This document shows positions 1,045-54,000 of a stretch of 64,000 bases of DNA, piece after piece (position 1 is the stretch's first letter; each line of letters starts with the position of its first letter). Origin of the DNA: Chitinophaga sedimenti (GTDB lineage: Bacteria; Bacteroidota; Bacteroidia; Chitinophagales; Chitinophagaceae); assembly GCF_023156195.1 (NCBI RefSeq), contig NZ_JAKUKA010000001.1, positions 5,146,001-5,210,000 of the forward strand. Reading direction: 5' to 3'. The translations under genes were made by a program, and so were the position numbers. The notes under the pieces are model-generated. The model saw nothing but the letters and a program-made list of their open reading frames with translations, made no database searches and was not told where the DNA came from.

Positions 1045-1119
1045 GAGGGGATAATTTGCTTGTTAAACGGGGGAGGAGAAGTAAAAGTTACAGGTAGCGA
1101 AAAAATCCCGTTCTGTATG

Positions 1120-1174
1120 AGGATCTTAAGAGGATCTTAACTGGATGGTTACTGGATTGTTACTGAAATCGACC
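1120..1174. repeat. Tandem 11-bp degenerate repeats
   Basis: Consecutive 11-mers are visible: AGGATCTTAAG (1120), AGGATCTTAAC (1131), TGGATGGTTAC (1142) and TGGATTGTTAC (1153), followed by a weak TGAAATCGACC (1164). Units 1-2 and 3-4 are near-identical pairs, and all keep the 11-bp spacing. The tract lies upstream of the LVIVD gene, which is on the minus strand. A second, longer tract with the same period is at 44157-44299. Confidence 0.75.
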
Positions 1175-1346
1175 TGTTTCAGTAGTAAACAGCCGGATTT
1201 TAGTTACAGTTAGTTACGATCCCCTGGGGATGCTCTTATTATTGCCTTCATCAAAGAGGTAACGAAAGGGGAGAGAACAACTGCCGTGGTTTGGCTGAAG
1301 GAGTGGCTCAAAGGTGTCTAACTGCTTAATCAACAGCGAGTTAGTT

Positions 1347-41404: not shown

Positions 41405-44016
<2,612 letters not shown>

Positions 44017-44037
44017 TTAACTGGTTTACAATAAGTA

Positions 44038-44068
44038 GGGCTGTAGGCATCTGCTTACGGCCCTTTTT
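44038..44068 (+). terminator. Rho-independent terminator of alaS
   Basis: GGGCTGTAGGC pairs with GCTTACGGCCC through eleven pairs (two G-T), loop ATCT, then TTTTTG. Confidence 0.9.
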
Positions 44069-44156
44069 GTTTCCCGGCATGTCGATATATGTAAACCTTA
44101 ATCCGGATTATTTAACATCGATGTACACCTATTCCAGGACTAGACCGCCCTAAGGG

Positions 44157-44299
44157 CATCTTTTAAACATCTTAGGCTCATCCTAGGTTCATCCTAGGTT
44201 CAAGGTAGGTTCAAAGTAGGTTCACGAACCTGGCTTGAACCTAATATCAACGAAGTATTAACCTTATATCAACGAAGGATGTTACCAGGATGCTGATAA
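44157..44299. repeat. Long tract of 11-bp-register direct repeats
   Basis: Thirteen consecutive 11-mers can be written without slipping register: CATCTTTTAAA, CATCTTAGGCT, CATCCTAGGTT (twice), CAAGGTAGGTT, CAAAGTAGGTT, CACGAACCTGG, CTTGAACCTAA, TATCAACGAAG, TATTAACCTTA, TATCAACGAAG, GATGTTACCAG, GATGCTGATAA. The first six and the two TATCAACGAAG units are strongest. It lies between the alaS terminator and the double-PDZ gene. It has no open frame of note, and a period of 11 is not coding. Confidence 0.8.
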
Positions 44300-44412: not shown

Positions 44413-45405
44413 ATGATGAACAAACTGTTATATGCACTCGGTCTGGCAGGCATGATCGCCGCTACTCCGGCTTTTGCGCAGGACAATCACTCCGGCAAAC
44501 TGGGAGAGTATGACGAAATCATCTTAAAAAGAAAACGGGAAAGATGGTAAAGTGACCATCGAGATTAAGGCAGGTGAAGTATACGTAGACGGTAAAAAAC
44601 TGGAAGACTATAAAGGCGGTGATATCTCCGTATTACACCGCCGGAATACGCCGGTAGACGGCAATACGTTTAACTTCCGCGGCGCCCCCGTGGCGGGATG
44701 CAATTTTACCGTGGCGAAGGTGATCCGATAGCGCCAAAGGCCCCTTCGGCGGTGCTGGGCGTTATTACGGCGAAAGAAGATGCGAGAGGGGCGACCGTAA
44801 AGCAGGTGTCTGAAGGTAGTGCGGCCGAAAAAGCAGGACTGAAAGAGGGTGACATCATCACTAAAGTCAATGATGAAGCCATCCGGGAGCCACAGGAACT
44901 GTTTGAATCAATCGGGACGAAGAAGCCGGGGGATGAAATAACTATTACCTATCTCCGGGATAAAAAAGAGAGCAGGGTGAAAGCGAAGCTGGACCAACGT
45001 CCGGAGTCACAAATACGCTCGTTTAATTTTGGTCAGGATGATGATGCGTTCAACTTCCGCAGCGTGCCACGTGGCGGCGACCTGGATGAACTCTTTGGCC
45101 GCATGGAACGCCGTGGTGGTGGTAACGAAGCGAAACTGGGCCTGTCTGTACAGGATACCGAAGAAGCCACCGGTGCAAAGGTACTGGGTGTGACAGAAGG
45201 CTCCGCAGCGGAAAAGGCGGGCTTTAAGGAGAATGATATCATCACTGAAATCGCCGGTTCGGCTGTCCGCAACGCCCGCGACGTGGTGAGCACTTACAAC
45301 GTGAATAAAAACAAAAGTGAAGTAAGCGCAAAAATCATTCGTGGCGGCAAGGCTCAAACCCTTACGGTAAAGGTGCCTAAAAAGCTGAACAAAGAGAATT
45401 TGTAA
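44413..45405 (+). CDS. Exported protein with two PDZ domains (two frameshifts)
   Basis: About 331 residues. Signal peptide MMNKLLYALGLAGMIAATPA ending AFAQ. Two PDZ domains: GVITAKEDARGATVKQVSEG with SAAEKAGLKEGDIITKVNDE, and LGLSVQDTEEATGAKVLGVT with SAAEKAGFKENDIITEIAGS. There is no protease domain, unlike DegP/HtrA proteins, so it is probably an envelope adaptor. Breaks: a net +1/-2 change at 44532-44535 (RKNGKDGKVTIEIK) and C5 at 44695-44699 (one lost; RGAPRGGMQFYRGEG). The 11-bp repeat tract lies just upstream. Confidence 0.85.
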
Positions 45406-51096: not shown

Positions 51097-54000
51097 TTAG
51101 AAAGTGATTTCCAGTCCTACAGTGTAACTTTTGCTTACCGGGTATTTGAAGAATTCTTCGCCTTCAATGCCCACTTCAGGATCCACGCCCAGGTATTTCG
51201 TAAAGGTGAGCAGGTTTTGTCCCTGCGCATAAACGCGGGCGCCGTTCAGCTTCAGCGCATTCAGTGCAGCTTTGGGTAATGAATAGGCGAGCACCACGTT
51301 TCGCAAACGGATATACGAAGCATCTTCGAGATAACGGCTGGATGCGCTGCTGCTTAGCTTGTTGCCGTTAACAACCGGTTTGGGACGTTCGGCAATATCA
51401 CCCGCTTTTTGCCAGAAGTTTTCACCGGCGACTTTCATGTAGTTCCAGCCAAAACGGGCGCCGTCACCGTCGGAGAAACGACGGGTATTGTTGTACGCAA
51501 CATTGCCTTTTAATGCATAAAAGAAGGTGGATAAAGTGATGCCTTTAAAGCTGAAATTGTTTGTTAAACCCACGGTATACTTCGGCTGTGTATTGCCCAG
51601 TACGCGGAAGTTTGAAGCGGCAAAGGTGTCTGTTGTTTTGCCGTCTGCGCGATACCAGAGCGGATCGCCGTCTTCCGGTGCAACGCCGGCCCATTTTTTC
51701 ATATACCAGCTGTTAAGCGGTTCACCTACCCGGATGATTTTATTACCGGAAATGATATCCTGGTTTTTATACAGCTCATTTACCTTGTTACGGTTGAGCG
51801 TATAGTTGATCTCTGTTTCCCAGCGGAAGTTACCTACCAGGTTCTGGCTGCTGAGCGTTACTTCCACACCCTTGTTCGTGAGTTTGCCAAGGTTGTCCGG
51901 GCGCGTGGTAAAACCGCTCGTAGCCGATATCGGCACGTTCAGCAACATGTCTGTCGTTACACGTTGATAAAGGTCAATGCTGGCGGAAATGCGGCTTTGC
52001 AGCACGGCCGCCTCGAGGCCGAGATCCGTCGTAGCTACCTGTTCCCAGGTGAGTTCGTTGTTACCGATCGTACTGGGACGGCTGCCCGGCGCGCCATAGT
52101 AAGAAGAACCGAATGCATACAGTTGTTTATAGCCAAAATCAGAGAAGCCCGCATTGCCCGCGGTACCATAACTCACGCGGAGTTTCAGGTCGTTAATGGC
52201 TGCCAGGTTTTTCATGAAGGGTTCATCGGAAATACGCCACGATCCGCCTACGGAACCGAAGAATTTATAACGGTCATCCGCACCGAAACGGGAGGAGCCA
52301 TCAATACGGCCGGAAGCGGTCAGGTAGTAACGGTTGTTAAACGTGTAGTTCAGCTGACCGATGTAACCCAGGAACGCATAATCACTGCCGGCGCCGCCAA
52401 CGTCCAGCGGCGTAGCGGTTACGTTCAACACTTTCAGTTTGCCGTTGACGAGGCCCTGTCCTTCTGCGCTGAAATTAAGCGAGGCCGTGGGCTGGTATTC
52501 CATCATGACAAGGAAATCAAATTCATGCCGCTCGTCTCTCTTCCATTTAAAACCGCCGGAAAGGCTGGTCTGGCTCGTAATAGCGCGGTTCTGCTGATAC
52601 CCGTCGAAGATGCTGCCGCTCTTTTCCGGTTCCTGCAAATTGATCGCATCGGAGGTGGTAGGATCATAGAAACTTTTCTGGCGCGTAAAGATCATGTCTA
52701 CCGCCGTGGTTTGTGTGAACTTCAGCCAGTCGGTGATTTTATAACCGAAAGAGATGCGGCCGAGTCCGCGAAAGTTATAATTGATGTTGGTGTTCAAAGG
52801 AGTGGAGTAAAGAAAGTTGTCGCCAATAGGTGTAGGCCACTCATCTTCCCAGCCTTTATAATAGCTGCCGTCCGGTTTGTATGGATTAATCATCGGACTA
52901 AGAGAGAATGCGGCAATCAGCGGGCTGGCAAAACGGTTGCCGGCTACGGCATTATTGGTGGTCGAGTAGCTCAGGTTCAGATTAAGGCTGATGTCGAGGC
53001 GGTTGTTTACCTGTTGTTGCAGGTTGCTTACCACGCTGTAGCGTTCAAAATCAGACGCAATAACGGCACCCTGTTGTTTCATGTAACCGGCGGAGAGATA
53101 GTATTTTGTTTTATCGTTACCACCCGAAGAAACGATTTCATATTGCTGTGTATGACCGTTTTTAAAAGTTGCGTCTACCCAGTCGAAACCGTGATCGAGC
53201 AGGGAGTCGGGGTACTCTGCATCAAGCTGTGCGGGCGTAGCGCCGGCGAGTTCACGGACCTTACGTTCATAGTTCCATGCTTCCCGCGTGTTCATCACTT
53301 TCCATTTGCCGAAGCTGGGATTTGTGATACCATATTGCGCACGTGCGGTGAGCGTAGAGGTGCCGGCCTTGCCTTTTTAGTAGTAATAACGATTACCCCG
53401 TTACCGCCGCGTGCACCGTACAAAGCCAGTGCTGTCGCGTCTTTCAGGATGGTTACATTTTCTACGTCGTTGGGATTGAGGTTGGCGAGGATGTCGCTTG
53501 TTTGCGTAGATACATCGAAGTTGAATTGTCCACGGGCTACGATGATGCCATCGATTACGTAGAGCGGTTGCTGATCGGCATTCACCGAACCCACACCGCG
53601 AATGAGTACACTTTGCCGTGCACCGGGCTGCCCGGACGGTGACGTTGTTTGTACGCCGGTAGCGCGTCCCTGCAGGATCTGGTTAATATCCGGCATCGGA
53701 ACATTTTCGATCTCCGCGCGTTTTACCTCGGCGGCCGCAGTAGCTGCTTTTCGTTTGTCTACCTGCGTGTAACCGGTGATGAGCACTTCTTCCAGCGTTT
53801 TATTATCGGCCGAAAGTGTTATGTTCAGCGTGTTGCCGGTACCTACCCGTTGTTCGTGCGTTTCGTATCCAACAAAGCGGAATACCAGTACGCCGGACGA
53901 TTGTGCGGGCAGTGTAATCTGGTAGGCGCCATCATCGTCTGTGTTGGACCCTGTGGTGGTGCCTTTAATAATAACAGTTACGCCGGGAAGTGGTGCACCA

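What the first reader, a model, noticed from the sequence alone, without database searches (positions are those of the whole stretch)
44157..44299. 143-bp tract of direct repeats in strict 11-bp register, between alaS and a PDZ gene
Seen: thirteen 11-mers in unbroken phase, with CATCCTAGGTT twice in a row, then CAAGGTAGGTT and CAAAGTAGGTT, then TATCAACGAAG twice separated by exactly one unit. The units drift in sequence but never in spacing. An 11-bp period is not coding and matches roughly one helical turn, so it would present successive sites on one face of DNA. Inference: a regulator or nucleoid-protein array, or a slippage-born intergenic element peculiar to this lineage. I know of no named family that fits.
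Basis: partly seen in the sequence, partly recalled or inferred. Interest (0 to 1): 0.72.

Follow-up and report, generated by a model that had tools for sequence, protein, structure and literature searches.

The report
Genome-wide hairpins built of 11-base units
The repeat tract is one worn copy of a large family of DNA palindromes scattered between genes, whose arms are built from units of exactly 11 bases; related bacteria keep this geometry while changing the letters, and a jumping element uses the palindromes as landing sites.

Summary
The tract is real (lag-11 identity 0.606; shuffled 0.255, 0 of 5000 as high), but it is not an isolated direct-repeat array. It is one of 19 aligned copies, 136 columns without gaps, of a dispersed quasi-palindrome: 11-bp units, a short centre, then inverted units. 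A model of it finds 46 places in this genome and matches in 31 of 79 genomes of the genus.

In 1.34 Mb from seven of those genomes, period 11 marks 25 loci; periods 5, 8, 10, 13, 14, 16, 17, 19 and 20 mark none. Units differ between loci. In sister species many copies are near-perfect hairpins whose arms covary (45 hairpins; 0 of 500 shuffles as high).

An IS3-family element lies at such a hairpin in 14 of 14 readable copies, four or five units from its centre. Here 17 of 19 copies have an IS3-type end beside them. REP-type transposases show no association.

Best reading: a new, REP-like class of extragenic palindromes, kept as hairpins in whole 11-bp units. Origin and function are inferred.

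The parts
44038..44069 (+). Intrinsic terminator after alaS; a similar terminator precedes the array in the relative G106
   Evidence: Read by eye (stem followed by a T run); compared by eye with G106
44091..44146 (+). IS3-type end (GTAAACCT..ATCCGGATTA..GTACACCTATTCCAGGAC), terminus facing the palindrome; not found at the G106 orthologous site
   Evidence: Pattern match at 44123-44140 with 2 mismatches; alignment to the right end of the G211 IS3 element scores 47, maximum of 500 shuffles 32, and to its left end 34; best match in G106 L267 has 6 mismatches and is not at the array
44157..44167 (+). Outer left unit CATCTTTTAAA (in other copies it pairs with CTTAAAAGATG on the right)
44168..44222 (+). 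Left arm: five 11-bp units, consensus CATCCTAGGTT
44223..44226 (.). Palindrome centre CACG within TTCACGAA
   Evidence: Palindrome scan
44227..44281 (+). Right arm: five inverted 11-bp units, AACCTAnnATn / AACGAAGGATG type
44282..44292 (+). Outer right unit TTACCAGGATG

Best explanation
The tract is a degraded member of a large class of extragenic palindromes found through much of the genus. Shown here: each copy is a hairpin-forming inverted repeat whose arms consist of units of exactly 11 bp around a short centre; copies are dispersed; unit sequence differs between families and species while 11-bp phase is kept; in sister species the arms covary; an IS3-family element lies at the hairpins with a 3-bp duplication, at a distance of whole units from the centre, and ends of a related element flank most copies here. 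Inferred: arms are kept complementary at the DNA level (one arm copied from the other when the sequence folds back as a hairpin or cruciform), and arms grow, shrink and homogenise in whole 11-bp steps, so geometry is inherited although the letters turn over. The elements probably persist as REP-like, mostly selfish or weakly useful palindromes and serve as tolerated landing sites for IS3-family elements.
For: Dispersed copies: BLASTN of the tract on its own genome gives 20 distinct places at E <= 1e-8, itself included; 19 align over 136 columns without gaps; model R1 gives 46 distinct places at E <= 0.01. Period: 25 loci at 11 and none at 5, 8, 10, 13, 14, 16, 17, 19, 20 in 1.344 Mb of seven genomes. 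Form without sequence: units ATATAACCCAT, GGTCACCTCAA, AAGTTATAGTC, GCTACATCCTT and others, several palindromic. Covariation: 45 distinct hairpins, 387 cells changed on both sides against 122 +/- 12 shuffled, score 0.530 against 0.149, none of 500 shuffles as high. In 22 representatives, outer units resemble their neighbour in the same hairpin (0.64) more than the same-rank unit of other hairpins (0.50), as expected if units are copied. IS3: 14 of 14 readable copies lie beside a hairpin (26 to 30 of 30 paired, maximum 21 in 50 shuffles per flank); by the loop midpoint the terminus is 42.5 to 44 bp from the centre in 13 and 55 bp in one; 3-bp duplication in 11 of 12 copies with both ends readable. 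Here 22 of 36 IS3-end-like matches lie within 200 bp of an R1 place, 0.12 expected. The orthologous site in G106 holds a palindromic array with another unit just after a similar terminator.
Against: In this genome the arms are only 70.4% paired and show no covariation beyond shuffles, so the structure is not visibly maintained here. No copying or slippage event was seen; no strain-level data were available. The 45 hairpins were found with a model built on this family and had to pair in at least 34 of 44 positions, so their pairing percentage is inflated. Several period-11 arrays look direct only, without a palindrome (by eye), which hairpin copying does not explain. 48 of 79 genus genomes had no R1 match, and G228 had no period-11 locus in 100 kb. 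Near Bacteroidota hits outside the scanned genus genomes 11 is not special: a masked scan of 460 kb gave 23 loci at period 7, 8 at 8, 9 at 23 and 6 at 11. Period-11 arrays in the genus showed no clear orientation bias (12 tandem, 6 convergent, 4 divergent).
Confidence: 0.55

Rival explanations
1. Protein-binding array: each 11-bp unit is a site for a regulator or nucleoid protein, repeated once per turn so that all sites lie on one face; the inverted half is a second cluster.
For: Strict 11-bp spacing; in units 2 to 4 of arm A of the 19 copies the core TAGGTTCA is almost invariant while other letters vary; outer units of 22 hairpin representatives keep G, Y, T, Y at positions 7 to 10 in 40 to 42 of 44 units, though these were found with a model that favours such letters.
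Against: Variable positions are complementary between arms, which binding does not need. One genome carries several unrelated units, and no shared 5-letter anchor was found (5 of 39 arrays, 3.5 expected). B-DNA at 10.5 bp per turn (recalled) should allow 10-bp spacing too; period 10 gave none.
Confidence: 0.2
2. RNA element: the palindromes are transcribed at gene ends and act as long RNA hairpins (terminators, stabilisers or RNase III sites); 11 bp is one turn of A-form RNA (recalled).
For: Folding is far below shuffles (window copy -43.2 against -27.2 kcal/mol, z -4.5; G195 copy z -13.7). 26 hairpins: 10 convergent, 14 tandem, 2 divergent gaps against 13, 48, 20 background (convergent p 0.026, divergent p 0.09). 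At one base pair G-T outnumbers A-C 10 to 3.
Against: Outside that pair wobble is not preferred over A-C in 22 oriented hairpins (7 against 8). No Rfam family matches. No T run follows the copies in the 53 bp viewed (by eye), and the window copy lies beyond a separate alaS terminator. No expression data.
Confidence: 0.15
3. The unit that moves is hairpin plus one IS3-type end, a one-ended non-autonomous element mobilised by an IS3-family transposase.
For: 17 of 19 copies have the end, in all 17 with the terminus facing the hairpin, in 16 with 5 to 29 bp between the end pattern and the 136-bp element; 18 of 19 loci hold no IS3 transposase match within about 1.5 kb, and independent deletions would hardly leave the same end so often.
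Against: No matching second end seen; G106 has the palindrome at the orthologous site without the end; of 30 hairpins scanned, mostly from sister species, 1 had a strict end motif (L359, outside that set, has one too); in G211 the IS lies beside differing hairpins.
Confidence: 0.12
4. Neutral minisatellite born of polymerase slippage; 11 is accidental and spreads by drift.
For: Similarity decays from lag 11 to 22 to 33.
Against: The same length in unrelated units at many loci and several species, palindromic order and covariation.
Confidence: 0.06
5. REP/REPIN elements moved by a RAYT tyrosine transposase.
For: Dispersed extragenic palindromes; a TnpA-REP subclass mostly in Bacteroidetes with atypical flanking structures is described (PMC6006769, passages).
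Against: Y1_Tnp in 7 of 31 model-positive and 9 of 48 model-negative genomes, p 0.78, none in the window's genome. The 8 Y1_Tnp loci held show no hairpin (best 21 to 25 of 40 paired, shuffles 21 to 23; three IS3 control loci 36 to 40) and no 11-bp array.
Confidence: 0.03

Closest known systems
REP / BIME extragenic palindromes
   Same: Dispersed, extragenic, palindromic, many copies, targets of IS3-family elements (IS1397, ISKpn1, ISPsy8; PMC1525189, passages)
   Different: REPs are 20-40 bp (PMC3733652, passages); here 23 hairpins of five sister genomes have stems of 38 to 64 bp built of 11-bp units; no RAYT association; letters change between species while phase is kept
IS1397/ISKpn1-type target choice (IS3 family)
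   Same: IS3-family element found specifically at palindromes, with 3-bp duplications here
   Different: The insertion lies four or five 11-bp units from the centre of a long arm; hairpins of differing sequence are used within one genome
MITEs
   Same: Short, non-coding, dispersed; an IS-like end nearby in 17 of 19 copies
   Different: No pair of terminal inverted repeats around the copy was seen; target duplications of the palindrome itself were not searched for
Minisatellites / simple sequence repeats
   Same: Tandem units, neighbouring units alike
   Different: One fixed length in unrelated units; inverted halves; covariation

Membership tests
REP/REPIN with RAYT | Short extragenic palindrome in many copies | tested here: inconclusive
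   46 places in this genome, palindromic, but much longer than the 20-40 bp of REPs
REP/REPIN with RAYT | Cognate Y1 tyrosine transposase in genomes that carry the elements | tested here: not met
   7 of 31 positive genomes, 9 of 48 negative, 0 in own genome (p 0.78)
REP/REPIN with RAYT | GTAG or CGTC tag at one foot of the palindrome | not tested
   Not examined
IS3-targeted palindromes (IS1397-like) | IS3-family element inserted at the palindrome | tested here: met
   14 of 14 readable copies in G211, G209 and G230; 5 further loci viewed had no recognisable terminus, and 11 of the 30 loci were not viewed
MITE | Two terminal inverted repeats matching an autonomous element | tested here: not met
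   IS3-type end on one side in 17 of 19 copies; no second end seen on the other flank (by eye)
Intrinsic terminator | GC-rich stem followed by a T run | tested here: not met
   No T run directly after the 19 copies in the 53 bp printed (by eye)
Known structured RNA (Rfam 15) | Match at gathering score | tested here: not met
   0 matches in the window and in 9 loci with hairpins
Phased protein-binding array | Binding of a protein to the units | not testable with these tools
   Needs pull-down or footprinting

The most novel reading that the evidence does not exclude
A class of chromosomal palindromes in which geometry, not sequence, is inherited: a DNA-level process copies one arm from the other and adds or removes exactly one 11-bp turn at a time, so that species end up with their own letters in the same frame. 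This would be a self-maintaining helical-turn minisatellite, with the 11-bp step set by the turn of the folded stem.
Probability: 0.3. Interest if true: 0.85.

Novelty: new variant of a known kind. Interest (0 to 1): 0.62.

Why it matters
Extragenic palindromes such as REPs are usually recognised by sequence and linked to a dedicated transposase. Here species of one genus keep a geometry (11-bp units, short centre, covarying arms) while the sequence changes, without an association with the known REP enzyme. That makes a testable case for hairpin-guided copying in chromosomes, for why a repeat length should equal a helical turn, and for how IS3-family elements find harmless landing sites.

Tried and rejected
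RAYT/REP mobilisation: tested by family search in 79 genomes, no association. Rfam: no match. tRNA or tmRNA: none in the window. A common anchor motif (TRARC) shared by 11-bp families: 5 of 39 arrays against 3.5 expected. Covariation within the window genome's own 19 copies: not above shuffles. Wobble test for RNA against DNA: inconclusive. Spread by phages or plasmids: one hairpin-core pattern has no exact match in viral contigs, and one own copy has no BLASTN match at E <= 0.001 in plasmid or phage records. 11 as a phylum-wide rule: not supported; 7- and 8-bp arrays are commoner in the masked Bacteroidota loci, G009 has 10 at period 7 and none at 11, and G004 and G452 have none at 11. I first took the IS3-type flank for a right end; one search does not settle this (against the G211 right end the five copies score 47, 41, 36, 33, 29, against the left end 34, 46, 38, 38, 40), so I call it only an IS3-type end. 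A first hairpin scan of the Y1_Tnp loci found one of two control loci only and was repeated with a more lenient scan. A first check of the IS3 flanks (part a) cut off stems close to the terminus and was redone. The first search for the palindrome centre used a wrong pattern and was replaced. Eight literature searches, confined to open-licence PubMed Central papers and with lists cut where many papers matched (12 of 2,411, 40 of 114), listed no paper on 11-bp palindromic arrays in Bacteroidetes; PMC4060949 (passages) treats 6-11-bp repeats only in general. Gene context rests on a crude longest-ORF caller, not on annotation.

Full report
Observation. The thirteen 11-mers at 44157-44299 are as described. 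Lag-11 identity is 0.606; 5000 dinucleotide-preserving shuffles give 0.255 +/- 0.037 and none as high, and in 2000 of them no lag between 5 and 39 reached it. TRF reports 5.2 copies of CATCCTAGGTT at 44168-44224. The tract lies after alaS and a terminator (by eye) and before a PDZ gene.

It is a palindrome. Read from its centre (CACG, 44223-44226) the right half is an imperfect inverted complement of the left half, 38 of 58 positions paired. The left arm has units of the CATCCTAGGTT kind; the right arm has AACCTAnnATn and AACGAAGGATG; in other copies the outermost units form a further inverted pair (CATCTTTTAAG and CTTAAAAGATG).

It is dispersed. BLASTN of the tract on its own genome (6.42 Mb; the window is G000:C1:5146001-5210000) gives 32 rows at E <= 10, of which those at E <= 1e-8 fall on 20 distinct places, the window copy included. 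I aligned 19: L019 is the reverse-strand match to the same place as L013, and the place at 52239 came without a locus. All 19 align over 136 columns without a gap. A covariance model of these (R1) gives 93 rows at E <= 1 in the own genome (150 of 756 candidates were scored), which I count by hand as 46 distinct places at E <= 0.01, two of them abutting. In this genome the arms pair in 70.4% of cells (26 to 41% when slid), but changes in the two arms are not correlated beyond shuffles: these copies look decayed.

Eleven is special in the genus sample. I scanned 1.344 Mb from seven genomes of the genus (own 464 kb with the window, G106 400 kb, G203 80 kb, and 100 kb each of G195, G221, G228, G211) for 55-bp stretches with at least 33 matches at a given lag. 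Lag 11 gave 25 loci (two are in the window, one of them the finding itself). Lags 5, 8, 10, 13, 14, 16, 17, 19 and 20 gave none; lag 7 gave two, 22 nine, 23 one, 32 two, 34 one and 38 one. Multiples of three, expected in coding DNA, gave several each (13 at lag 33). At lower thresholds other lags appear, but 11 stays the highest of the twelve lags tried (31 against 20 at lag 22 and 13 at lag 7 in the loosest setting). G228 had none at 11. The genus is probably Chitinophaga: contig C1 of G256 has the same length, 6287533, as the record titled Chitinophaga sp. E66; this is an inference.

Form is kept, letters are not. The period-11 loci have different units: ATATAACCCAT, GGTCACCTCAA, AAGTTATAGTC, GCTACATCCTT, GAGACCAAGCA and others. 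Several are palindromic, others look direct only. No shared anchor was found. The relative with the most similar PDZ protein, G106 (74% and 69% identity in two pieces), also has a palindromic 11-bp array in the orthologous alaS-PDZ gap, just after a similar terminator, but its unit is TACGAAGGATA. Independent origin at the same spot is not excluded.

Beyond the genus the picture is weaker. In a draw of 296 genomes across the phylum the motif is in the own genome and 2 others. With those matches masked, 66 Bacteroidota loci (460 kb; I left out 14 loci of other phyla) gave 23 loci at period 7, 8 at 8, 9 at 23 and 6 at 11. Of other genomes sampled at 100 kb each, G085 had 2 at 11 but also 3 at 7 and 4 at 8, G288 had 1, and G004, G009 and G452 none.

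Near-perfect hairpins in sister species. R1 matches 31 of 79 genomes of the genus at E <= 0.01; thirteen of these had 41 to 43 rows, at or near the number of candidates scored, so their counts are lower bounds, and both strands count. Of 16 loci examined from that search, 10 are hairpins with 43 to 49 of 50 positions paired; the other six scored 23 to 40. In stretches of five sister genomes chosen because they hold R1 matches, 23 hairpins have stems of 38 to 64 bp. From loci already held I collected 45 distinct hairpins with at least 34 of 44 pairs and a loop of 0 or 6. They align without gaps: 97.4% of 1980 cells pair, 387 cells are changed on both sides (122 +/- 12 in shuffles), 30 of 44 pairs have such changes, and the covariation score is 0.530 against 0.149; none of 500 shuffles reached any of the five measures. 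The pairing percentage is inflated by selection; related copies count more than once.

DNA or RNA. In 22 hairpins that could be oriented by an asymmetric loop there are 927 Watson-Crick cells, 17 G-T, 11 A-C and 13 others; leaving out one pair (10 G-T, 3 A-C) the counts are 7 and 8. Selection on RNA should favour G-U, so this leans to a DNA-level process but is not decisive. RNA folding is strong (window copy z -4.5; G195 copy z -13.7). Rfam has no match. Hairpins favour convergent gaps (10 of 26 against 13 of 81, p 0.026) and tend to avoid divergent ones (2 of 26 against 20 of 81, p 0.09); two of the 26 share one gap. The set of 22 period-11 arrays shows no clear bias (12 tandem, 6 convergent, 4 divergent against 286, 85, 113).

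An IS3-family element lands on them. The flank of most own copies resembles the end of an IS3-family element with rve and HTH_Tnp_1 domains. A relative in G209 abuts a hairpin. Of 30 loci that match its OrfA in the genus I viewed 19; 14 have a recognisable terminus: 9 of 9 copies in G211 (a single contig), 2 in G209, 3 in G230; the other five have none, and 11 were not viewed. All 14 lie beside a hairpin: 26 to 30 of 30 positions paired, against at most 21 in 50 shuffles of each flank. Taking the middle of the loop as centre, the terminus is 42.5 to 44 bp from it in 13 copies and 55 bp in one, that is, four or five units. The hairpins differ between copies. Of 12 copies with both ends readable, 11 have a 3-bp duplication (GAT, ATC, ATA or TAT); L442 does not. 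IS3-family elements that choose REP palindromes are known (IS1397, ISKpn1, ISPsy8; PMC1525189, passages).

The same in this genome. Of 36 matches to the end pattern (up to 3 mismatches; the reversed control gave 7), 22 lie within 200 bp of an R1 place (0.12 expected), covering 17 of 19 class-1 copies and 3 of 27 other places; beside class 1 the terminus faces the hairpin in all 19 matches, beside the others it faces away in all 3. In 18 of the 19 loci no IS3 transposase match was found within about 1.5 kb; L016 has an OrfB-like gene (44% identity) next to its hairpin. From the gaps, and counting six bases from pattern to terminus, I reckon the end at 76 to 79 bp from the centre in 10 of 17 copies (seven units are 77). 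Whether the end is a left or right one is not settled (see Tried and rejected).

Not a RAYT system. Y1_Tnp is in 7 of 31 R1-positive and 9 of 48 R1-negative genomes (p 0.78) and not in the own genome; the 8 Y1_Tnp loci held show no hairpin above shuffles and no 11-bp array, while three IS3 control loci do.

How it may work. Shown: dispersal, palindrome, phase, differing units, covariation, IS3 association in register with the units. Inferred: when the stem folds (lagging strand or cruciform) one arm is used as template for the other, and slipped pairing by one unit adds or removes 11 bp. In 22 representatives, outer units resemble the neighbour in the same hairpin more (0.64) than the same-rank unit in other hairpins (0.50), while inner units are conserved by rank (0.81 and 0.86). 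That 11 bp is one turn of A-form nucleic acid is textbook knowledge recalled, not tested.

Limits. No transcription, binding or strain-level data; crude gene calls; R1-based ascertainment of the hairpins; the own assembly is 80% complete with apparent frameshifts.

Noticed in passing
window 1098-1188: A second period-11 tract (GAGGATCTTAA, ACTGGATGGTT) in the same window, not matched by BLASTN with the first
   Followed up: partly
window 41405-44153 and 44413-45405: alaS and the PDZ gene are broken by apparent frameshifts; the genome scores 80% complete, which suggests indel errors in the assembly
   Followed up: no
L060, L064, L069, L074 (own genome): Another IS3-type end (TGCTCCGTCCTGAAATAAGTTGACAC) lies next to intrinsic-terminator-like hairpins in 4 of 4 loci (by eye)
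   Followed up: no
L059, L065, L080 (own genome): A second hairpin class with 11-bp arms and a longer loop (AAAACCGCTTCCACGGCCGATTG or similar), with an IS3-type end nearby that faces away
   Followed up: partly
L055, L058, L059, L063, L070, L201, L204 (own genome); L222 (G106): An 11-bp array family with units like ACTGAACCATC, direct only by eye, beside an IS3-type end in several of these loci
   Followed up: no
L384 (11023 and 11318), L394 (2808 and 2937), L395 (4493 and 4671): Hairpins occur in pairs about 130 to 300 bp apart
   Followed up: no
L333-L337 (G009): A genome of another genus in the family has 10 period-7 loci in 100 kb and none at 11
   Followed up: no
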